From the NCBI RefSeq assembly GCF_003633755.1, contig NZ_RBIL01000001.1:977426-1041425 (forward strand): a DNA stretch of 64,000 nt. Direction: 5' to 3'. This document shows positions 4,542-57,726 of the stretch, piece after piece. This stretch comes from Solirubrobacter pauli. Its GTDB lineage: Bacteria > Actinomycetota > Thermoleophilia > Solirubrobacterales > Solirubrobacteraceae. Under the pieces are notes generated by a model. It made no database searches, was not told the origin of the DNA, and was given only the letters and a program-made list of their open reading frames with translations. The translations under genes and the position numbers were made by a program. Numbering within the stretch: position 1 is the first letter of the stretch; every line of letters starts with the position of its first letter.

Positions 4542-5595
4542 AGCCGCCCGCCTCGGCGAAGCGCAACGCCTCGGCCGCCTCGGTGAGCGGGTAGCGGGCC
4601 GCGACCTGCGGCTCGATCACGCCGTCGCGGAGGAGGGCGAACACCCGGGTGAGGTCCTCGCGGAGCTGCGCGCGGAAGTGGGCGCGGCGGAAGCGGTGCC
4701 CCGCCCAGAGGTTGAAGAACGTGGCCTTGCGCCCGTTTGGCAGGACGTTCCAAACTTGCAGCTTGGCGATCAGCTTGAGCACCGGCAGCGCCGGATTGCC
4801 GGGGACGTCGCGCGTGGACGCGGTGCCGTAGGAGACGAGCGTGCCGCCGCGCGCGAGCATCCGCCACGACGCGTCGATGCCCGGGCCGCCGACGTGGTCG
4901 AAGACGGCCGCGACGCCTTCGGGCGCGAGCGCGTGCACGCGCGCGGGCACGTCCTCGCTGCGATGGTCGATCACGGTCGCGCCGAGCGCACGCACTCGCT
5001 CGAGCTGCCGCGGGCCGGATGTCCCGATCACTTCGACGCCGGCGTGACGCGCGAGCTGCACGAGCACCGAGCCCACACCCCCGGACGCGCCGAGCACGAC
5101 GATCGTGTCGCCGCGCTTGACCTTCGCGGCGCGATGCAGCATCCGCCACGCGGTGAGCCCGTTGACGACGACGGTCTCCGCCGCCTCGGCGCTCACGCCG
5201 TCCGGCACGGGCACGAGGTCGTCGCGGTCGAGCACCACGTGGTCGGCCCAGCCGCCGACCTTCGTCAACGCCGCGACGCGCTGCCCGGGCGCGAGGGCCG
5301 CCCCGGCCGCGCCGCCCGCCCCGGCCACGCCGCCCGCCCCGGCCACGCCGCCCGCCCCGGCCGCGCCGCCCGCCCCGGGTTCCCCCACGATCGTGCCGAC
5401 GAGGTCGTAGCCCGGCACGAACGGGAACTTCGGCTGGTCGTAGTACTTGCCGCGGCGCATCTGCTGCTCCGCGAACGAGACGCCGGTCGCCTCGACGCGG
5501 ACGAGCGCCTGCCCTGGCCCGGGCGCCGGCAGCTCGCGCGTCCGCACTCGCGGGAACTCGCCCTGCGCCGCCATCTCCAGCTCTGTCGCCTGCAT
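4513..5595 (-). CDS. MDR-family (quinone reductase-like) NADPH oxidoreductase
   Basis: Medium-chain dehydrogenase/reductase of the zinc-free quinone-oxidoreductase type. 360 aa. The GroES-like N-terminus has VRVEATGVSFAEQQMRRG and PFVPGYDLVG. The Rossmann motif is VLGASGGVGSVLVQLA, followed by IGTSGPRQLERVRALGA. An unusual Gly/Ala-rich insert (about residues 73-100) is encoded by four 18-bp tandem repeats, where relatives normally have a short turn before APGQRVAAL. Divergent from a TetR gene with a perfect palindrome between them. Substrate unknown; the insert should sit in a surface loop. Confidence 0.85.
   Translation of the reverse strand: MQATELEMAAQGEFPRVRTRELPAPGPGQALVRVEATGVSFAEQQMRRGKYYDQPKFPFVPGYDLVGTIVGEPGAGGAAGAGGVAGAGGVAGAGGAAGAALAPGQRVAALTKVGGWADHVVLDRDDLVPVPDGVSAEAAETVVVNGLTAWRMLHRAAKVKRGDTIVVLGASGGVGSVLVQLARHAGVEVIGTSGPRQLERVRALGATVIDHRSEDVPARVHALAPEGVAAVFDHVGGPGIDASWRMLARGGTLVSYGTASTRDVPGNPALPVLKLIAKLQVWNVLPNGRKATFFNLWAGHRFRRAHFRAQLREDLTRVFALLRDGVIEPQVAARYPLTEAAEALRFAEAGGFTGKVVLVP
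5311..5382. repeat. 18-bp in-frame tandem repeat (about 4 units)
   Basis: Units start at 5311, 5329, 5347 and 5365. The first two are identical (gccgcccgccccggccac), the third differs near its end, and the fourth decays in its last bases. A degenerate copy precedes 5311. On the minus strand each unit adds six residues of the AGAGGV/AGAGGA type to the MDR oxidoreductase, so gain or loss of units keeps the frame. This looks like slippage expansion. Confidence 0.9.
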
Positions 5596-20457: not shown

Positions 20458-20829
20458 TCAGTAGGTCTTGTAGGAGCGCCAGACGCTGTAGAGGGCCCAG
20501 CCGGCGAGGCCGAGCATCAGCATCCAGATCATGCCGCCGAGGAGGTCGAGGTCGCCCCAGAGGCGGCCGGTGGCGGCGATGGCGAAGACGGCCAGGGCGA
20601 AGGCGCCGTAGGCGATGGCGCGCTGGCGCTCCTCGAGGCCGTGGAGGGTGTCACGGTGCTCCATGTAGAGGCGGTAGCCGAGCCAGCAGAAGCCGCCGAG
20701 GAAGAGCACGGAGAAGACGTTGCTGATCGTCGTGGCCGCGGTGCCGCCGCCTGGGAGCTTCCAGACGGCGACCGCCAGCACGAGGATGATCGCGACGTTG
20801 CGGATGTGCTTGTTGCGGTCCGGGTCCAC
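20458..20829 (-). CDS. small integral membrane protein
   Basis: 123 aa from a GTG at 20829. About four hydrophobic segments: VAIILVLAVAVW, FSVLFLGGFCWLGYRLYM, AIAYGAFALAVFAIAAT and LLGGMIWMLMLGLAGWALY. The start lies 12 nt after the response-regulator stop, so the two may be co-transcribed. No family recognised. Confidence 0.75.
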   Translation of the reverse strand: MDPDRNKHIRNVAIILVLAVAVWKLPGGGTAATTISNVFSVLFLGGFCWLGYRLYMEHRDTLHGLEERQRAIAYGAFALAVFAIAATGRLWGDLDLLGGMIWMLMLGLAGWALYSVWRSYKTY

Positions 20830-20841
20830 CGGACGTCAACT

Positions 20842-21702
20842 TTAGCCCGCGGGGGCGTATTCGGGCGCGGGGAGCGCCGTCAACGCGGAGATGTCGTCGG
20901 GGGCCGACAGCTCGTCGGCCGGTTCCGGGACGGGCAGGGCCGCGCCGACCGGGTCCTCGACGGGCTCGGCCGAGAAGCGGTAGCCGATGCCGAAGTGGGT
21001 GTGGATGTAGCGCCAGTTCGACGAGGCGCGCTCGAGCTTCGAGCGCAGCTTGCGCACGAAGACGTCGACGCTGCGGTCGCCGTGGACCATGGCGTAGCCC
21101 CAGACGCGCTGGTAGATCTCCTCACGCTGCAGGACCTGGCCCTCCGCCTCGGCGAGGAGCTGGATGAGCTCGAACTCGCGGCGGGTGAGCTCGACGGACA
21201 CGCCGCCGACGAACGCCTGGAACTGGTCGGCGCGGATCTCGACCTCGCCGATCATGACGGGGCCCTTCTCGACGCGCACGTCGGCGCGCTTGCGACGGCG
21301 GACGACGGCCTCCACGCGGGCGATGAGCTCCTCGGGGTGGCAGGGCTTGGTGACCCAGTCGTCGGCGCCGAGGCGCAGGCCGCGCACACGCTGCGCCACG
21401 GAGGACTGCCCCGTGCACACGATCACGCCCAGGCCGGGCAGACGAGCGCAGAGCTTGTCGAGGTAGGTCCAGCCCTGCGGGCCGAGCACGGCCAGGTCGA
21501 CCACGACCGCGTTCAGCCGCATCGCCACCATGGCGTCCAGCGGAACGGGTGAGGCCAACACGCGGTACTGCCAACCCATCCCCTCCAGGCGCTTGCCCAG
21601 CACCTGGAGGAAACCGGTGTCGGAGTCGATCACCGCGAGCCGGACGGTGGACTGGCCGCCAGGCGCGGCGCCGGTGCGCCGCTCTTCGCTCATCGTCGTC
21701 AT
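20842..21702 (-). CDS. PhoB/OmpR-type response regulator (probable phosphate regulator)
   Basis: About 286 aa. The receiver domain has the acidic pair in AVIDSDTGF, the phosphoacceptor aspartate in AVVVDLAVLGPQG, the CTGQS threonine and the TKPCHPEEL lysine, so it looks functional. The C-terminal winged helix has VELTRREFELIQLL, RSVDVFVRKLRSKLE and YIHTHFGIGYRF. A Pro/Ala tail follows. Starts at 21723 (GTG), 21702 or 21693 are all possible. It follows phoU on the same strand but is separated by a terminator and its own 11-bp direct repeats; no histidine kinase is nearby. Confidence 0.88.
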   Translation of the reverse strand: MTTMSEERRTGAAPGGQSTVRLAVIDSDTGFLQVLGKRLEGMGWQYRVLASPVPLDAMVAMRLNAVVVDLAVLGPQGWTYLDKLCARLPGLGVIVCTGQSSVAQRVRGLRLGADDWVTKPCHPEELIARVEAVVRRRKRADVRVEKGPVMIGEVEIRADQFQAFVGGVSVELTRREFELIQLLAEAEGQVLQREEIYQRVWGYAMVHGDRSVDVFVRKLRSKLERASSNWRYIHTHFGIGYRFSAEPVEDPVGAALPVPEPADELSAPDDISALTALPAPEYAPAG

Positions 21703-21751
21703 CTCGCTGGGCACAGTATCCACGACCGGGTTTGTCTACGAGGGTTCAAAC

Positions 21752-21817: not shown

Positions 21818-22495
21818 TCAGCTCACGTGGGACGCGTCCGAGAACTCTCGGAACTGCCCCGTGACGACGAACGCGACCTGCTCGCCGATGTCCACCGCGT
21901 TGTCGCCGATCCGCTCGATCGCACGCGCGACGAGCATCATCGACATCGCCCACTCGCGCCGGTCCGCGTCCGTCCCGATCTCGACCGCCCGCGAGAACAC
22001 GCAGCGGTTCAAGCGGTTGATCTCGTGGTCCTGGCGGACCAGGTCCTCGGCCACGGCCACGTCGCGCAGCAGGAACGCCTGCTTGCACTGCTCGACCTCG
22101 GAGCGGGCGAGCTTGCCCATCTTGAAGATGTACTCGAGCATCTGCTCGTCCTTGGGCGGCTCGTAGCCGACCACGGGCAGCATCTTCGCGATGTTCACGC
22201 ACTGGTCGCCCATCCGCTCCACGTGCTTGATCACGTGCAGCAGCGCGGCGACGAGCCGCAGGTCCGACGCGACGGGCGCCTGCAGGGCGAGCAGGGACAG
22301 GATGCCCTGCTGGACCTCCAGATACCGCCCGTCGATGCGATCGTCGTCATGGATGACGATCGACGCGAGCTCGATGTCCTGGTGCTCGAGCGCCTCGAGC
22401 GTGCGGTCGAGGGTCTTGACGACGAGGTCGATCCCCCCGAGCGCCTGCGACTCGAGCTCGCGGAGCTCTTCCTGGAATTGCTGACGGCCACCCAC
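21818..22495 (-). CDS. phoU: phosphate transport system regulatory protein PhoU
   Basis: 225 aa with two PhoU three-helix repeats. It links the Pst transporter to the Pho kinase and lowers Pho signalling when phosphate is plentiful (family knowledge). Repeat 1 has ALEHQDIELASIVIHDDDRIDGRYLEVQQ and repeat 2 has EDLVRQDHEINRLNR. HVIKHVERMGDQCVNIAK and VARAIERIGDNAVDIGE are the paired metal/phosphate motifs. Last gene of the pst operon, 25 nt after pstB. Confidence 0.95.
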   Translation of the reverse strand: MGGRQQFQEELRELESQALGGIDLVVKTLDRTLEALEHQDIELASIVIHDDDRIDGRYLEVQQGILSLLALQAPVASDLRLVAALLHVIKHVERMGDQCVNIAKMLPVVGYEPPKDEQMLEYIFKMGKLARSEVEQCKQAFLLRDVAVAEDLVRQDHEINRLNRCVFSRAVEIGTDADRREWAMSMMLVARAIERIGDNAVDIGEQVAFVVTGQFREFSDASHVS

Positions 22496-22520: not shown

Positions 22521-23321
22521 TCAGCCGAATCGTCCGCTGACGTAGTCCTCAGTCTCCTTGTTGGACGGGTTGGAGAAGATCTTCTCCGTCGTGTCCACCT
22601 CGACGAGACGCCCCGGCTTGCCGGTGCCCTCGATGTTGAAGAAGGCAGTGTTATCGGATGAGCGCGACGCCTGCTGCATGTTGTGCGTGACGATCACGAT
22701 CGTGTACTCCTTCTTGAGCTCGGTGATCAGGTCCTCGATCGCGAGCGTGGAGATCGGATCGAGGGCCGAGGCGGGCTCGTCCATCAGGAGGACGTCGGGC
22801 TCGACGGCGGTCGCGCGAGCGATGCAGAGACGCTGCTGCTGGCCGCCGGACAGGCCCATGCCGGGCTTGCCGAGGCGGTCCTTGACCTCGTCCCACAGGT
22901 TCGCGCCGCGCAGGGCGCGCTCGACGATCGCGTCGAGGTCGGCCTTCTTGATCTTGCGCGCGTTGAGCTTGAGGCCGGCCGCCACGTTGTCGTAGATCGA
23001 CATCGTCGGGAACGGGTTCGGCGCCTGGAACACCATGCCGATCTGGCGGCGGACCTGGACCGGGTCGGCGTCGGACGCGTAGATGTCGGTCTCGTCGAGC
23101 AGGACCTCGCCGTCGGCGTACGCGCCCGGGACGAGCTCGTGCATCCGGTTCAGCGAGCGCAGGAACGTCGACTTGCCGCAGCCGGAGGAGCCGATCAGCG
23201 CCGTGACCTTGTTCGGCTCGATCGTGATGTTGACGTCCTTGACCGCCAGGAACTTGCCGTAGTACAGGTTCAGGTTGGTGGCCTTGATGCTCTTGGCCTT
23301 GACGGGCGCGATGGCGGTCAT
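22521..23321 (-). CDS. pstB: phosphate ABC transporter ATP-binding protein
   Basis: ATPase of the high-affinity phosphate importer. 266 aa. Walker [19 protein letters not shown]-loop [13 protein letters not shown] (PNPFP is typical of PstB), signature [14 protein letters not shown] and Walker [23 protein letters not shown] is the H-loop. The ATG at 23321 overlaps the pstA stop (ATGA); the frame continues upstream only as a shadow. Confidence 0.97.
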
Positions 23322-24487
23322 CGGATCTCCGTGCCGAAGCGGCGGTAGATGAAGCGGGCGGCCACGTTCAGGATCATCACGATCATGATCAGCACGAGCG
23401 CGGCGGTCCACGCACGGTCGATCGACGGCTCGGGCGGCACGCCGGGGGACTTGTAGGAGCTGAAGGCGAAGACCGCGAGGTTCTGCATGCGGCCGTCGAA
23501 CGGGTTGGTGTTGACCGATGCCACGACGCCGGTGGTGATCAGCAGCGGAGCGGTCTCGCCGATCACGCGGGCGATCGCAAGCACGATGCCGGTGACGATG
23601 CCGCCGAGCGCGGTCGGCAGGACGACCTTGAGGATCGTCCGCCACTTGGGCACGCCGAGCGCGTAGGACGCCTCGCGCAGCGAGTTCGGGACGATCCGCA
23701 GCATCTCCTCGGTCGACCGCACGACGATCGGGATCATCAGCACCGACAGCGCGACCGCGCCGATGATGCCGAGGCGGATGCCCGGGCCGAGGAAGATCGA
23801 GAACAGCGCGAAGGCGAACAGGCCGGCGACGATCGACGGGATGCCGGTCATGACGTCGACGAAGAACGTCAGCGCGCGCTTCAGGCGCCCGGTGCCGTAC
23901 TCCTGCAGGTAGATCGCGGCGAGGATGCCGATCGGCACCGAGATCACCGCGGCGCAGCCCGTGATGATGAGCGTGCCGTAGATCGCGTGGATGGCGCCGC
24001 CGCCCTCGCCGATCACGCCGCGCATCGACCACGTGAAGAACTGCGAGTCGAAGCGCGCGGCACCGCGCTCGATCACGGTGTAGAGCAGCGAGACGAGCGG
24101 CGTGAGCGCCAGCGCGAACGCGGCGACGACGCCGTAGGTGACGGTGCGGTCGGTCGCACGCCGCGGGCCTTCGACGGTGCGCGAGATCACGTACTGCGCG
24201 ACGCCGCCGACGACGACCGTCGCGACGATCCAGAGCGCGAGGTTGAAGCCCGTCGCGAGCAGCAGCAGGCCGATCACGGCGGCCACGCCGGCGACGATGC
24301 CCCACGGCGCCCAACCCGGCAGGACCCGGCCGGCGACCTGCACCGGCGGGCGCACCCGCGCGGGCGCGGACGTCTCGGCGACGGGCACATCGACGGTGTG
24401 GGCCGTGTTGCCCGCCAGCGACGGCAGGCCCTGCGGCTCGTGCGTGGGCTCGGTCACGTGCTCGCGTTCGGTGGGTTCGGTGCTCAT
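23318..24487 (-). CDS. pstA: phosphate ABC transporter permease PstA
   Basis: 389 aa, longer than the usual 280-300 because of a roughly 65-residue cytoplasmic N-terminus rich in Pro/Glu/Thr and two extra hydrophobic segments. The permease core has [29 protein letters not shown] and the coupling loop [36 protein letters not shown] overlap with pstB. Confidence 0.95.
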
Positions 24488-24490
24488 GGG

Positions 24491-25438
24491 TTAGATCCGG
24501 ACCTGGCGGTTGATCACCGTGCGCGCGGCCATGTTGACCGCGAGCGTCAGGGCGAAGAGGACGAGGCCGGAGGCGATCAACGCGTTGACCGCGAGGCCGG
24601 AGGACTCGGGGAAGGTGAGCGCGATGTTGGCGGCGATCGTCGACGGGTTCGCCGACGAGATCAGGTTGTCGGTCACGCCGCCGGAGACCGAGAGCAGGAT
24701 GGCCACGGCCATGGTCTCGCCGAGCGCGCGGCCGAGGCCGAGCATCGAGGCGGAGATGATCGCCGACTTGCCGAACGGCAGGACGGTCAGGCGGATCATC
24801 TCCCAGCGCGTGGCGCCGAGGGCGAGCGCGCCCTCCTGCAGCCGGCGCGGGGTCTGCTCGAACACCGCGCGCGTGACGGCCGTGATGATCGGCAGGATCA
24901 TCACCGCGAGCACGACGCCCGCGACGAGCATGGTGCGGCCCGTGGACGAGGCGGGGCCTTCGAAGAACGGGATGAAGCCGAGGTTGTCCGACAGCCATTC
25001 GAGCACCGGCACGGACGCCGGGCCGAGGACCGCGATGCCCCAGAGGCCGTAGATGACGCTCGGGATCGCGGCCAGCAGGTCGATGAGGTAGCTCATCGGC
25101 TGGGCGATGCGGCGCGGCGCGATGTGGCTGATGAACAGCGCCACCGCGACGGCCATGGGCACCGCGACGATGATCGCGATCGTCGCGGCGACGACGGTGC
25201 CGTAGAGCAGAGGCCAGACGTACTTGATGAGGCTCTCCTGGTTGGGGAGGTCCTCGGCGCTGGCGGTGATGGCCGGCCAGGCCTTCACCAGCAGGAAGAT
25301 CGCCACACCGGCGAGGATGGCCAGGATCAGGCCACCCGCGCCGGTCGCGGCTCCCTTGAAGACGCGGTCACCGACGCCGCCCCTGGCGGGTCCGCCGCGA
25401 ACTACGGATTGCAGGTCGTCGACGTCGGCTGCGCTCAC
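24491..25438 (-). CDS. pstC: phosphate ABC transporter permease PstC
   Basis: 315 aa from a GTG at 25438 with GAGG upstream. Six membrane segments. [24 protein letters not shown] and [21 protein letters not shown] are typical PstC regions, and the coupling loop is [24 protein letters not shown]. It is the second gene of the pst operon, 27 nt after pstS. Confidence 0.95.
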
Positions 25439-25465: not shown

Positions 25466-26596
25466 TTAGTTGGCCGCGATCGCGTCGACGGCCGGCTGCA
25501 CCTTGGCGCGGACGGCCTCGCTGATCGGGGCGGAGCCCGCGTTGGTCGCGGCGGCCTGCTGGCCCTCCGCGCTGACGATGTAGTTGACGTAGCCCTTGAC
25601 GAGGGCGCCCTGAGCGGCGTCGTCGTACTTGGTGCAGGCCAGCAGGTAGGACACGAGCACGATCGGGTACGTGCCGGCCTCGGTGGTGTCGCGCTTGAGG
25701 TCGTACGTGAACACGTGCGCGCCCGGGTCGTCGGTCTCCTCGGAGGCCTCGACGATCTTGGCGGCCGCCTCGGGCGTCGGGGCGACGAACTCCTCGCCGA
25801 CCTTGACCGAAGCCTTGCCGAGCTCGCCCGCCTGGGAAGCGTCGGCGTAGCCGATCGCGCCCTTGCCGGCCTTGACGGCGTCGACCACGCCGGACGTGCC
25901 CTGAGCGGCCTCGCCGCCCTTGACGGGCCAGTCGCCGCTGACCTCGAAGTCCCACACGTCGGGGGCGACGGCGGCCAGGTACTCCTGGAAGTTCTCCGTG
26001 GTGCCCGACTCGTCAGAGCGGTTGACGACCGTGATGCGCTCGCTCGGGAGCGTCGCGTCCGGGTTGTCGGCCTTGATGGCCGCGTCGTCCCACGTCTTGA
26101 TCTCCTGCTTGAAGATCTTCGCGAGCGTCTCCGGCGAGAGCTGGAGGTTCTCGACGCCGTCGAGGTTGTAGATGACCGCGATCGGCGAGATGTACGCCGG
26201 GATCTCGATCAGGTTGTCGGGACCGCCGCAGCGCTCCTGAGCACCGGTGAGCTCCTCGTCCTTGACGTGGGAGTCGGTGCCGGCGAAGGCGACGCCACCG
26301 GCGATGAACTGCTCACGACCGCCGCCGGAGCCGACCGCGTCGTAGGAGATCGTCGTGTCGGGGTTGGCCTCCTGGAAGCCGGCGATCCAGGCCTGCTGCG
26401 CCGCCTCCTGCGAGGACGCGCCGGCACCGGCCAGGTTGCCCGACAGCTCAGCGGCCGCGGGCGTCGCCGCAGCGGCGTTGGCGTTGTTGCTGCCGCTCTG
26501 GGCAGGCTCTTCGTTGGCTGCGCCGCACGCGGTCGCGCCGAACGCCAGCGCGACGGCAGCCGCCATCGCCACCGGCTTGAACCGGGTGGTTCCCAT
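25466..26596 (-). CDS. pstS: phosphate-binding lipoprotein PstS
   Basis: Surface phosphate receptor, 376 aa. Lipoprotein signal MAAAVALAFGATACGAAN (lipobox ATAC). AGASSQEAAQQAWIAGFQ, YDAVGSGGGREQFIAGGVAFAGTDS and VNRSDESGTTENFQEYL are the phosphate-contact loops. ATG at 26596 with GGAAGG 4 nt upstream. Its promoter carries four 11-bp Pho-like repeats, so it is presumably induced by phosphate starvation. Confidence 0.96.
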   Translation of the reverse strand: MGTTRFKPVAMAAAVALAFGATACGAANEEPAQSGSNNANAAAATPAAAELSGNLAGAGASSQEAAQQAWIAGFQEANPDTTISYDAVGSGGGREQFIAGGVAFAGTDSHVKDEELTGAQERCGGPDNLIEIPAYISPIAVIYNLDGVENLQLSPETLAKIFKQEIKTWDDAAIKADNPDATLPSERITVVNRSDESGTTENFQEYLAAVAPDVWDFEVSGDWPVKGGEAAQGTSGVVDAVKAGKGAIGYADASQAGELGKASVKVGEEFVAPTPEAAAKIVEASEETDDPGAHVFTYDLKRDTTEAGTYPIVLVSYLLACTKYDDAAQGALVKGYVNYIVSAEGQQAAATNAGSAPISEAVRAKVQPAVDAIAAN

Positions 26597-26649
26597 TGAC
26601 CCTTCCTTCTCTGATCCGTACGCCGATGACCCTCGCAGGGCGAGGGCGG

Positions 26650-26693
26650 CGTCCTGTTACCGACTTGTTCCTGACTTGTGAAAAAGCTGTGAA
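26650..26693 (-). promoter_or_regulatory. Pho box (four 11-bp direct repeats) upstream of pstS
   Basis: Four contiguous minus-strand units: TTCACAGCTTT, TTCACAAGTCA, GGAACAAGTCG and GTAACAGGACG. All have AC at positions 4-5, and the 11-bp period is that of actinobacterial PhoP sites. The array covers the last codons and stop of the upstream winged-helix gene and ends 53 nt before the pstS ATG. A TACGGA element nearer the start could be the -10. Confidence 0.75.
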
Positions 26694-27016
26694 GGCTCGC
26701 GCTCGAAGCGGTAGCCGAAGCCGAAGTGCGTGTGGATGAACTCCGCGTGCGGAAGCGCTCTCGCGAGCTTCGTCCGCAGCTTGTGCACATAGACGTCGAC
26801 CGAGCGGTCGGCACCGCGCATGGGCGCGCCCCAGACCGTCGTGTAGAGCTCTTCGCGCGACACGATGCGTCCCTCCAGGCGCGCCAGTGCCGCCAGCAAC
26901 TCCAATTCGCGCACCGAGAGCGAGAGCGTCCGTCCACCCGCCCGAGCAACATGCTCGGACGGCCGGATCTCCAACTCCCCGGCGATCAGGACTTCCGTCT
27001 GCTCACTCGTGTGCAT
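26657..27016 (-). CDS. receiver-less PhoB/OmpR-type winged-helix DNA-binding protein
   Basis: 119 aa, almost entirely the trans_reg_C winged helix: LSLSVRELELLAALARLEGRIVSREELYTTVW, RSVDVYVHKLRTKLARAL and FIHTHFGFGYRF. It closely resembles the DNA-binding half of the 20842 regulator (HTHFGIGYRF), but only about 25 residues precede the domain, so there is no receiver. Dimerisation or control must be unusual. It sits just upstream of pstS and has its own four-unit Pho-like array. No Shine-Dalgarno is visible; a perfect 22-nt palindrome occupies the leader. Confidence 0.85.
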   Translation of the reverse strand: MHTSEQTEVLIAGELEIRPSEHVARAGGRTLSLSVRELELLAALARLEGRIVSREELYTTVWGAPMRGADRSVDVYVHKLRTKLARALPHAEFIHTHFGFGYRFEREPSQLFHKSGTSR

Positions 27017-27019
27017 CGA

Positions 27020-27041
27020 CGCGTACCTTGGGCGGTACGCG
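27020..27041. promoter_or_regulatory. Perfect 8-bp inverted repeat in the winged-helix gene leader
   Basis: cgcgtacc-ttgggc-ggtacgcg is a perfect 8-bp inverted repeat with a 6-nt centre. It lies between the Pho-like array and the ATG (27016), ending 3 nt from the start codon. It could be an extra operator or an RNA hairpin controlling translation. Confidence 0.6.
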
Positions 27042-27045
27042 CCTG

Positions 27046-27089
27046 GAACCGGTTACCGGTCCGTGAACCCGTCGTTATCAAGTTGTGAA
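27046..27089 (-). promoter_or_regulatory. Pho box (four 11-bp direct repeats) upstream of the winged-helix gene
   Basis: Contiguous minus-strand units TTCACAACTTG, ATAACGACGGG, TTCACGGACCG and GTAACCGGTTC. All have AC at positions 4-5, and TTCAC alternates with a T-x-AC form at 22-bp spacing. The array overlaps the stop codon of the HD-domain gene (27053) and ends 29 nt before the 27016 ATG. Confidence 0.75.
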
Positions 27090-27649
27090 GGCGGTAACAC
27101 GTCGAGCGCCCAGAGCTCGAACTCGAGCTGGTCGACGAGGGCGAGGCCCGTCGTCTCGGCGCGCAGCATCGTGAGGCTGGCGCGATAGTGCTCGAGCTTG
27201 GGCCCCTGCAGCGCCGACGGGTCGCGCGCGACCTTGGCCCGCAGCTCGCGCACCTTGGCCACCTTGTCGGCGGCGTAGACCGCGCAGGCGCCCGTGCCGG
27301 CCGCGGCCACCTGCGCACGCAGCGCCGCCTTGCGGGCCACGTAGTCCTCGATCGCCGGGTTCTCGGACACGGCGGCCACGAGCGCGGCCACGCGCACGCC
27401 GAAGCGGCGCTCCACGTCGTCGACGGTCACGCTCGTGTTCTCCACCACGTCGTGCAGGACGCCGGCGGTCACGACCTCGTCGCTGAAGTCGCGGCCGTTC
27501 AGCAGCGAGGCGACCTCGAGAGGATGCAGGACGAACGGGGCCTGGTCGACCTCACGGCGCTGGTCCGCGTGCATGACGAGGGCCCATTCCACAGCTCGGC
27601 GGACGCTCGGACGTGCCTCGGCGAAAGGCGGCAGTCTGGTCGTAAGCAC
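27053..27649 (-). CDS. MESH1-like RelA/SpoT-type HD hydrolase
   Basis: About 198 aa from a GTG at 27649 (27658 also possible; the frame is open to 27823). HPLEVASLL, AGVLHDVVENTSVT and YAADKVAKVRELRAK match the HD domain of RelA/SpoT, and the size fits stand-alone small alarmone hydrolases (MESH1 type), with no synthetase or regulatory domain. MESH1 proteins remove the 3' pyrophosphate of ppGpp or dephosphorylate NADPH (family knowledge). The usual EDT motif is ENT here. Its position beside the pst genes suggests a starvation link, by inference. Confidence 0.75.
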   Translation of the reverse strand: MLTTRLPPFAEARPSVRRAVEWALVMHADQRREVDQAPFVLHPLEVASLLNGRDFSDEVVTAGVLHDVVENTSVTVDDVERRFGVRVAALVAAVSENPAIEDYVARKAALRAQVAAAGTGACAVYAADKVAKVRELRAKVARDPSALQGPKLEHYRASLTMLRAETTGLALVDQLEFELWALDVLPPSQLDNDGFTDR

Positions 27650-27787
27650 TGCGACCACCGTACCGGCGGTGGGGACTCCCGGGACCGGGCGCGGGAGGAG
27701 AGAGTTGCCGCGCCAGGCCCCGGGAGGGACTGCTCGGCGCGCCGCTCCGGCGGGAGCGCCTCGATCAGTGAATCCCAGGGGCGCTCG

Positions 27788-27809
27788 GCGCCCGTGAAGA
27801 GGTTGTGAA
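27788..27809 (-). promoter_or_regulatory. Two Pho-like 11-bp units between the HD and DUF47 genes
   Basis: On the minus strand TTCACAACCTC (27799-27809) and TTCACGGGCGC (27788-27798) are contiguous 11-bp units with the same TTCAC start as in the pstS and 27046 arrays. They lie in the divergent region between the HD gene and the DUF47 gene. Only two units, so weaker evidence. Confidence 0.4.
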
Positions 27810-27849
27810 CGCGTTCGGCGCAAGCGATTTGGCCCTGTACGGTCGATCC

Positions 27850-28485
27850 GTGCTGTTGCGCCGGACCCGGCCCGACCCGGAGCTGTTGACGCTGTTCGAT
27901 GAGTCGGGCCGCAACGTCCAGCGGTCCGCTCTGCTGCTGCGCGACCTGCTGTCCGACTATCCCGAGCGCGCGGGCCTCTCCCGCGACATCGTCCTGTGCG
28001 AGCAGGAGGGCGACCGGATCGTCCACGACATCCACCACCGGCTGGCCAAGCGCGGCTCGCGGCGCGCGCACCTGGACTCCGCCGACGTCCATGCGCTCGC
28101 GGGCGCGCTGGACGACATCGTCGACTACGCCGAGGAGTGCGCCGACCAGCTGGCGCTCTACGGCGTCGAGGCCCCGATGGAGCAGGCCGAGGCGATGGCC
28201 GCCGTCCTCGTCTCCTGCTCCGAGCAGGTCGCCCAGTCCCTGCGCGGCCTGCGCAACGGCCTGGACGTCGGCGCCCAGCTCGTCGAGATCCACCGCCTCG
28301 AGAACGAGGGCGACAAGATCCAGCGCGCCGCCCTCGCCGACCTGTTCGTGGCCGGCATCGACCCGATGATCGTGATCCGCTGGAAGGACATCTTCGACAC
28401 GCTCGAGTGCGCGATCGACGCCTGCGAGACGGTCGCGAACGTCCTCGAGGGCATGACCCTCAAGCGCACGAACGGCCATTCTTGA
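27850..28485 (+). CDS. DUF47 (PhoU-like, Pit accessory) family protein
   Basis: 211 aa, all-helical. FDESGRNVQRSALLLRDLL, CEQEGDRIVHDIHHRL, LDDIVDYAEECADQLALYGV and RLENEGDKIQRAAL match DUF47, the PhoU-related partner usually encoded beside a Pit phosphate permease. No pit gene follows here. The start GTG at 27850 aligns with the usual DUF47 N-terminus (LLRRTRPDPEL); the frame also has a GTG at 27805, inside the Pho-like units. Confidence 0.85.
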   Translation: MLLRRTRPDPELLTLFDESGRNVQRSALLLRDLLSDYPERAGLSRDIVLCEQEGDRIVHDIHHRLAKRGSRRAHLDSADVHALAGALDDIVDYAEECADQLALYGVEAPMEQAEAMAAVLVSCSEQVAQSLRGLRNGLDVGAQLVEIHRLENEGDKIQRAALADLFVAGIDPMIVIRWKDIFDTLECAIDACETVANVLEGMTLKRTNGHS

Positions 28486-57693: not shown

Positions 57694-57726
57694 CCGACGG
57701 TGCAGCATTCGTGAACGACTTGTTAC
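57694..57726 (-). promoter_or_regulatory. Pho-box-like 11-bp repeats upstream of ppk
   Basis: Minus-strand units GTAACAAGTCG (57716-57726), TTCACGAATGC (57705-57715) and a weaker TGCACCGTCGG (57694-57704). They share AC at positions 4-5 and AACAAGTCG is identical to a unit upstream of pstS. The array overlaps the ppx stop codon and ends 17 nt before the ppk start. Confidence 0.65.

What the first reader, a model, noticed from the sequence alone, without database searches (positions are those of the whole stretch)
26657..27016. Receiver-less PhoB-like regulator beside pst
A 119-aa protein is only the PhoB-type winged helix. It strongly resembles the DNA-binding half of the full response regulator at 20842 yet lacks any phosphoacceptor domain. 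It sits directly upstream of pstS under its own Pho-like array. It could be a constitutive activator, a competitor, or a starvation amplifier of the Pho regulon. I know of no described role for such a protein here.
Basis: partly seen in the sequence, partly recalled or inferred. Interest (0 to 1): 0.8.

Follow-up and report, generated by a model that had tools for sequence, protein, structure and literature searches.

The report
Receiverless PhoB twin upstream of pst
In soil bacteria of the Solirubrobacter lineage, a small protein that is only the DNA-binding half of the phosphate-starvation regulator PhoB is encoded in front of the phosphate-uptake genes and probably acts on the same DNA sites that control it, which hints at a rewired phosphate response.

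Summary
The 119-aa ORF (26657-27016, minus) is a complete OmpR/PhoB effector domain and nothing else, 52% identical to the effector half of the regulator at 20842. No receiver remnant lies upstream. It is a conserved family: under purifying selection, one clade in three families of the order, and directly before pst (70) or phoU (6) in 76 of 76 assessable loci among the best 80 of 162 relatives. Its promoter and pstS's carry the same four-unit, 11-bp-period Pho array in the -35 position; in the 7.1-Mb genome the 38-bp pattern matches only these two places. The neighbouring full-length regulator has lost the receiver's direct Mg ligand in 49 of 52 order members (17 of 17 homologues in other orders keep it), and no PhoR-type kinase adjoins it. 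Best explanation: an autoregulated, phosphorylation-independent co-activator that amplifies a small Pho regulon. Binding and the sign of action (activator or competitor) are untested. New variant of a known kind; not described in the open-licence papers searched.

The parts
26657..27016 (-). receiverless PhoB-like effector-domain protein, 119 aa (the finding)
   Evidence: Pfam Trans_reg_C only; AlphaFold2 pLDDT 88.3; dN/dS 0.02-0.15
27052..27089 (-). four-unit Pho array before the small gene (TTCAC-n6-ATAAC-n6-TTCAC-n6-GTAAC)
   Evidence: matrix score 34.3; one of two genome-wide matches
27025..27030 (-). -10-like element CAAGGT; A at +23 and T at +27 behind the array
   Evidence: A in 34/41 and T in 35/41 loci at these distances
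26656..26693 (-). Pho array of pstS, overlapping the 3' end of the small gene
   Evidence: matrix score 27.6; second of two genome-wide matches
26629..26634 (-). -10-like element GAGGGT of pstS
   Evidence: A at +23 in 24/33 and T at +27 in 27/33 loci
25466..26596 (-). pstS
   Evidence: Pfam PBP_like_2 and operon context
24491..25438 (-). pstC
   Evidence: Pfam BPD_transp_1 and operon context
23318..24487 (-). pstA
   Evidence: Pfam BPD_transp_1 and operon context
22521..23339 (-). pstB
   Evidence: Pfam ABC_tran and operon context
21818..22495 (-). phoU
   Evidence: Pfam PhoU
20842..21723 (-). full-length PhoB-like regulator with degenerate receiver (D-S-D in place of the acidic pair)
   Evidence: Pfam Response_reg and Trans_reg_C; residue check
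27794..27809 (-). weak pair of Pho units between the HD-domain and DUF47 genes; doubtful
   Evidence: (control 2)
27805..28485 (+). DUF47 (PhoU_div) protein, divergent neighbour; true start uncertain
   Evidence: Pfam PF01865; divergent DUF47 in 36 of 75 assessable loci

Best explanation
The gene encodes a paralogue of the lineage's PhoB that lost its receiver, most simply once, in the stem of the order. Shown by sequence: a complete effector domain; the same Pho array in the -35 position before its own gene and before pstS; conserved linkage to pst or phoU. Inferred: on phosphate shortage the full-length regulator binds the array before the small gene and raises its synthesis; with no receiver to hold the domain back, the small protein binds the arrays without phosphorylation, alone or beside the full-length regulator, and pushes transcription of pstSCAB-phoU-regulator and of its own gene further. 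It is thus a positive-feedback amplifier of a small Pho regulon, with PhoU, made by the same operon, as the likely brake. That it activates rather than competes rests on E. coli PhoB, whose isolated effector domain activates, and on the promoter layout.
For: Array and -10 layout conserved in 41 of 47 small-gene promoters and 33 of 47 pstS promoters; only two 38-bp matches in the genome, control 0; 11-bp-spaced TTCAY pairs 52 in 12.4 kb and 30 in 14.0 kb against 10 in 481 kb. The array stays before the small gene where phoU, not pst, follows (L069, L095, L175, L177). PhoB positions W184, R193, R203, T217 invariant in 46 of 46, D192 in 43. Linkage in 76 of 76 assessable loci. Isolated PhoB effector domain activates with 7-fold higher affinity than unphosphorylated PhoB (PMC3264566, passages) and binds constitutively (PMC4415409, passages).
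Against: No binding or expression data. OmpR and KdpE effector domains alone do not activate. Of four PhoB residues needed for activation, G185 is kept in only 34 of 46 and V190 is not conserved; position 189 is Arg in 41 of 46 and the acidic E191 is missing, though E191 is also missing in the regulators and in the homologues of other orders. R200 varies (His, Arg, Ser, Gly, Ala) and R219 is replaced, so affinity may differ from the regulator's. Some order members have pst and the regulator but no small gene (L166-L168, L185-L187).
Confidence: 0.5

Rival explanations
1. Competitor or limiter: the small protein occupies the arrays but contacts RNA polymerase poorly and, induced together with pst, damps the response (negative feedback).
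For: Clade-specific changes in the loop that contacts sigma in PhoB (Arg at 189 in 41 of 46, G185 lost in 12 of 46) and in the recognition helix (R200 variable); OmpR and KdpE effector domains alone bind but do not activate.
Against: W184 kept in 46 of 46 and D192 in 43 of 46; the promoters look activator-dependent, with no sigma-70 consensus found; the nearest well-studied case, PhoB, is active without receiver.
Confidence: 0.2
2. Obligate partner: the small protein works only together with the full-length regulator, filling part of the four-unit array, as a DNA-bound subunit rather than an independent regulator.
For: Four units per array; small gene and regulator kept together: the regulator lies beside the small gene in 28 of 75 assessable loci and at the end of the pst operon in many others; fixed differences between the two at position 198 (Tyr 46 of 46, Phe 53 of 53).
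Against: No interaction evidence; in some fetched stretches, such as L171, L183 and L072, no regulator is seen beside the small gene, though these stretches are limited.
Confidence: 0.2
3. Ordinary phosphorelay in disguise: a kinase elsewhere in the genome still phosphorylates the regulator, and the small protein is a minor accessory.
For: Phosphoacceptor Asp kept in 50 of 52, Lys in 53 of 53, and an acid at the position after the lost ligand in 52 of 52; 39 HisKA matches in the genome; nine homologue loci of family f5 with intact receivers also show no adjacent kinase; in some relatives a kinase with another regulator lies just beyond phoU, and its kin exist in the own genome.
Against: Direct Mg ligand lost in 49 of 52; none of 29 own-genome kinases tested (of 39) falls in the PhoR clade of the sister orders.
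Confidence: 0.3
4. Artefact: a truncated pseudogene or a mis-called start of a longer regulator.
For: It lacks the domain that usually precedes this fold.
Against: dN/dS 0.02-0.15 in 15 pairs; one clade in three families; start codon 31-44 nt behind the array in 32 of 41; no receiver remnant upstream.
Confidence: 0.02

Closest known systems
E. coli PhoB effector domain (PDB 1gxp, 3t72)
   Same: Complete OmpR/PhoB fold (Foldseek E 4.1e-08 to 1gxp); tandem 11-bp sites in the -35 place; constitutive binding when the receiver is removed (PMC4415409, passages)
   Different: There it is a laboratory truncation; here a separate conserved gene. R219 and H198 are replaced and the wing reads HTH[FVI]GFGYRF in most
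PhoR-PhoB of other orders of the class (L151, L153, L157, L161, L163, L164)
   Same: Related effector domain, THxGxGY wing, pst-phoU linkage, similar array before pst in L153, L163, L164 and, unlabelled, L151 and L157
   Different: They have a kinase beside an intact receiver; a tblastn search with the small protein showed no such gene in these stretches
Atypical response regulators with pseudo-receivers (ChxR, HP1043)
   Same: OmpR/PhoB fold working without phosphorylation (PMC3960148, passages)
   Different: They keep the receiver fold and dimerise through it; the small protein has none. The comparison fits the neighbouring regulator better
One-component wHTH activators such as CadC (ToxR-like)
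   Same: OmpR-type wHTH without a receiver (PMC5430869, abstract in listing)
   Different: CadC joins the domain to a transmembrane sensor; this protein carries nothing else
Co-binding of TctD and PhoB in Pseudomonas aeruginosa
   Same: Two OmpR/PhoB-family regulators meeting in phosphate control (PMC4513871, start of abstract in listing)
   Different: TctD is a response regulator; details not read here

Membership tests
OmpR/PhoB-type effector domain (Pfam Trans_reg_C) | profile match over the whole domain | tested here: met
   profile 1-77 of 77, 76.8 bits against cut-off 26.2
OmpR/PhoB-type effector domain (Pfam Trans_reg_C) | fold: N-terminal strands, three helices, C-terminal wing | tested here: met
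   AlphaFold2 model with E10-12, E15-18, E23-26, three helices, wing strands 91-97 and 101-108; PDB matches to PrrA, YycF, PhoB
OmpR/PhoB response regulator | N-terminal receiver domain | tested here: not met
   no Response_reg in the protein and no remnant upstream
PhoB orthologue | equivalog score over the whole protein | tested here: not met
   TIGR02154 53.3 bits against cut-off 296.2; the full-length neighbour scores 106.8 and also misses it
Pho regulon member | Pho array in the promoter, 11-bp direct repeats | tested here: met
   regulation itself not tested
Pho regulon activator | binds Pho arrays and activates transcription | not testable with these tools
   only residue conservation
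PhoR-PhoB two-component system (the locus) | cognate PhoR kinase | tested here: inconclusive
   none beside the regulator; no PhoR-clade member among 29 of 39 own-genome HisKA matches; ten untested
Pseudo-receiver (the full-length neighbour) | lacks at least one of DD, D, T, K (definition of PMC12632262) | tested here: met
   window regulator reads D-S-D at the acidic pair; DD2 non-acidic in 49 of 52

The most novel reading that the evidence does not exclude
The order has replaced the PhoR-PhoB phosphorelay by a phosphorylation-independent Pho switch: PhoU, coupled to Pst, acts directly on the degenerate receiver of the full-length regulator, and the receiverless twin turns the released signal into a self-sustaining burst of pst expression.
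Probability: 0.22. Interest if true: 0.82.

Novelty: new variant of a known kind. Interest (0 to 1): 0.64.

Why it matters
PhoR-PhoB is a textbook two-component system. A locus, spread over an order, in which no kinase adjoins, the receiver has lost its metal ligand and a receiverless twin sits first in the regulon would be a natural case of a phosphorelay being taken apart while its DNA sites survive. It turns the old result that E. coli PhoB's output domain is active on its own into a question about evolution, and it would make the unsolved step between PhoU and the regulator testable in a system without PhoR.

Tried and rejected
Hidden or frame-shifted receiver upstream: rejected. Chance array: rejected. 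Functional C-terminal tail: the SHxFHxxxTxR tail is of low confidence in the model (residues 113-119), is missing in the five Patulibacter-type loci where the array is intergenic (L079, L172, L174, L178, L179), and has a lower share of synonymous changes than the core in all 15 pairs, so I read it as Pho-box DNA that happens to be translated. PhoR orthologue in the own genome: none among 29 of 39. Wider spread: in 246 genomes of the phylum the profile passes 180 bits only in four, all of family f1; the next match has 133.6 bits (capped list, at most 18 candidates scored per genome); most of these others lie in long open frames, but two in G281 have frames of 112 and 106 aa and were not followed. 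Structure of the full-length regulator: model too poor to use (pLDDT 70.7, pTM 0.47). First survey of wing motifs in the own genome ignored the strand of minus-strand loci and was redone. Literature: no description found (open-licence PMC only; I saw listings, and passages of six papers).

Full report
WHAT IS THERE. The ORF at 26657-27016 (-) encodes 119 aa. Pfam finds one domain, Trans_reg_C, over its full length. AlphaFold2 on an alignment of 19 sequences gives a complete OmpR/PhoB effector domain (mean pLDDT 88.3); the best Foldseek matches in the PDB include PrrA, YycF, PhoB on its pho box (1gxp) and GlnR. It is 52% identical over 104 residues to the effector half of the regulator at 20842-21723. 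Among 38 Trans_reg_C matches of the 7.1-Mb genome it has by far the shortest open frame (131 aa). Order on the minus strand: small gene, pstS, pstC, pstA, pstB, phoU, full-length regulator, a 123-aa protein without NCBIfam match.

NO HIDDEN RECEIVER. Eight receiver queries against the 600 bp upstream of the small gene (window, 45 pst-linked relatives and one set-B locus, L090) give no match at E<=1 in the window. In the relatives the strong matches are the neighbouring intact regulator itself, antisense in L081-L085 or at the far edge of the stretch in L069, L173, L175, L177, L180 and L181; the others are short (14-39 residues) at E 0.1-0.9 in L061, L078 and L083.

A CONSERVED FAMILY. All 61 genomes have a match at E<=1e-10, but that includes full-length regulators. 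I took 79 long stretches around matches (L061-L100 and L150-L188). With the window, 46 genomes among these carry the pst-linked small gene: 37 of the window's family f1, five of f2, four of f3, none of the five f4 genomes (labels follow sequence, position and, for the rows in them, the trees). A scan of named genome contigs found 162 relatives and kept the best 80: Solirubrobacter, Conexibacter, Paraconexibacter, Patulibacter, Svornostia and many Solirubrobacterales or Thermoleophilaceae MAGs. Contigs of S. soli and S. phytolaccae match G005 and G003, which are of the window's genus, so the window is from Solirubrobacter by that grouping. Of those 80 loci 76 can be judged downstream: pst follows in 70, phoU directly in 6, neither in none. 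Of 75 that can be judged upstream, the full-length regulator lies on the same strand in 16 and divergent in 12, a divergent DUF47 gene in 36. These counts concern the best 80, not all 162. Core dN/dS among six Solirubrobacter sequences is 0.02-0.15 (15 pairs). Not every member of the order has the gene: L166-L168 and L185-L187 show the regulator with pst genes but no small gene in the stretch fetched. In 246 genomes of the phylum the profile passes 180 bits only in four genomes, all of f1.

ORIGIN. In a tree of 101 effector domains the small proteins and the pst-linked regulators form one group (100/99) apart from the other wHTH of the genome; 31 pst-linked small proteins form a clade (99/91), with L098 outside it. 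With 17 regulators from other orders added (79 rows, 106 columns, many forks unresolved, bootstrap not settled) all receiverless proteins form one clade (98/98), made of the pst-linked clade A (94/95) and a second set B that is not resolved as one clade; the order's regulators are 95/79, the three together 90/81. The simplest reading is one duplication with loss of the receiver in the stem of the order. The wing HTHFG is seen in two of the 30 own-genome wHTH loci looked at, the small protein and the regulator at 20842 (28, the other two; 8 of 38 were not fetched).

THE DNA SITES. Before the small gene and before pstS stands TTCAC-n6-TTCAC-n6-TTCAC-n6-RTAAC, with single units degenerate; in the window the array of the small gene has ATAAC as second unit and that of pstS GGAAC as third. 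Pairs of TTCAY at a distance of exactly 11 number 52 in 12.4 kb upstream and 30 in 14.0 kb downstream of the small gene against 10 in 481 kb of the rest of the same 46 loci. A matrix from 18 arrays gives 100 hits in the fetched stretches and none in reversed sequence: 45 before the small gene, 29 before pstS, 3 before pstC in sister-order loci with PhoR (L153, L163, L164), 23 without a labelled gene behind them, several of these in pstS position (the matrix was trained on arrays of the first kind). In the whole own genome the 38-bp pattern with up to 3 mismatches occurs twice, before the small gene (2 mismatches) and before pstS (3); control 0. A looser three-unit pattern adds 27783-27809 of the window and C1:4034203, with 2 control hits, so these are doubtful. 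Behind the array both promoters have an A at +23 and a T at +27 (34 and 35 of 41 for the small gene; 24 and 27 of 33 for pstS; 47 loci looked at, one of them set B), which I read as a -10 element at fixed distance with the last RTAAC in the place of the -35. A sigma-70 consensus scan of the region finds no promoter and no terminator. The start codon of the small gene follows 31-44 nt behind the array in 32 of 41, so its mRNA may be leaderless or nearly so; this is inference. The pstS array overlaps the last 37 bases of the small gene in the window; in Patulibacter-type loci it is intergenic.

CONTACTS AND ACTIVATION SURFACE. Mapped on E. coli PhoB (letters confirmed), W184, R193, R203 and T217 are invariant in 46 small proteins and D192 is kept in 43. 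G185 is kept in 34, V190 is not conserved, position 189 is Arg in 41, R200 varies, R219 is replaced by Val, Phe and others, H198 is Tyr in all 46 while it is Phe in all 53 regulators. In PhoB, W184R, G185R, V190M and D192G abolish activation and E177/E191 face sigma (PMC3973317, passages). E191 is also missing in the order's regulators and in the homologues of other orders, so its loss does not tell activator from competitor. DNA binding thus looks largely intact; the activation surface is kept in part.

THE PARTNER. Among 53 regulators of the order (33 of them first) the second residue of the acidic pair, the direct Mg ligand, is non-acidic in 49 of 52 readable rows. Of the three exceptions L166 keeps all five residues and L167 and L188 have Asn for the phosphoacceptor. 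The phosphoacceptor Asp is kept in 50 of 52 readable rows (L100, unreadable there, has Asn), Lys in 53 of 53, Tyr is Trp in 52 of 52. In 17 of 17 homologues from other orders all five residues are present. By the definition of PMC12632262 (passages) the order's receivers are mostly pseudo-receivers; that Asp, Thr/Ser and Lys are nearly always kept is unusual for that class (about 65% each there) and leaves room for phosphorylation. In 6 of 16 loci from other orders (L151, L153, L157, L161, L163, L164) a kinase adjoins pst-phoU and the regulator; the nine f5 loci show an intact regulator with neither kinase nor pst operon nearby, so lack of linkage does not prove loss. Within the order a kinase appears in 2 of 63 fetched stretches (L069, L177) and in 8 of the 80 contig loci, in six of these beside another response regulator. 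Kinase search: 30 own-genome kinases as queries, E<=1e-8. Of 39 HisKA matches in the own genome, 29 were put on a tree with six PhoR from sister orders; these form a clade (100/99) that holds none of the 29.

HOW IT MOST LIKELY WORKS. Phosphate shortage frees or activates the full-length regulator (step unknown). It binds the arrays before the small gene and pstS. The small protein, free of a receiver, binds the same arrays without phosphorylation and sustains transcription, including its own. PhoU, made by the operon, closes the loop. Shown: architecture, family, sites, promoter layout, partner degeneration. Inferred: binding, sign, order of events, PhoU as brake. Precedent: the PhoB effector domain activates on its own, those of OmpR and KdpE do not (PMC3264566, passages).

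VERDICT. A real, lineage-wide feature, not an artefact. Its parts are of known kinds; the arrangement is a new variant. No paper describing it was found in the open-licence searches made here; subscription literature was not searched.

Noticed in passing
L066:3129-3440, L071:2810-3112, L076:1457-1771, L089:3863-4204, L090:4832-5140, L092:5295-5591, L093:5566-5883, L094:252-548, L097:10902-11207, L099:2601-2915, L100:7932-8300: A second set (B) of 11 receiverless PhoB-like proteins, several convergent with the DUF47 gene of the same locus; L093 has an array-like site at 5460-5497 before it.
   Followed up: partly
L069, L175, L177, L216, L240, L245, L250, L253, L254: Compact module regulator - small gene - phoU without pst directly behind; the Pho array before the small gene is kept in L069, L175 and L177.
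   Followed up: partly
L216, L250 and own genome C1:2719705-2721297: A kinase with its own response regulator lies just beyond phoU in some relatives; its kin in the own genome are HK118/HK123 and the regulator L014. A candidate sensor acting in trans.
   Followed up: no
window 27053-27823 (-): HD_4 (RelA/SpoT-like hydrolase) gene whose 3' end overlaps the Pho array of the small gene; same arrangement in L062-L064, not in most other relatives.
   Followed up: no
window 20458-20829 (-): A 123-aa protein without NCBIfam match, directly behind the regulator and kept there in many f1 loci.
   Followed up: no
L078:8138-8912 (same place in L237): The full-length regulator is split into a receiver match and an effector match in different open frames; a sequencing error or a real split.
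   Followed up: no
L206, L258: Two records titled 'Bifidobacterium breve' MAG carry this Solirubrobacterales locus; the titles look wrong.
   Followed up: no
L223 and L230 (one contig, G008:C48): Two copies of the small-gene/pst locus 26 kb apart on one contig, with identical match scores.
   Followed up: no
G281:C2:37353-37655 and G281:C5:19-321: Two effector-domain matches in short open frames (112 and 106 aa) in a genome of another class of the phylum sample.
   Followed up: no
window 57711-57726 (-): One more pair of array-like units at 11-bp spacing, alone; perhaps chance.
   Followed up: no
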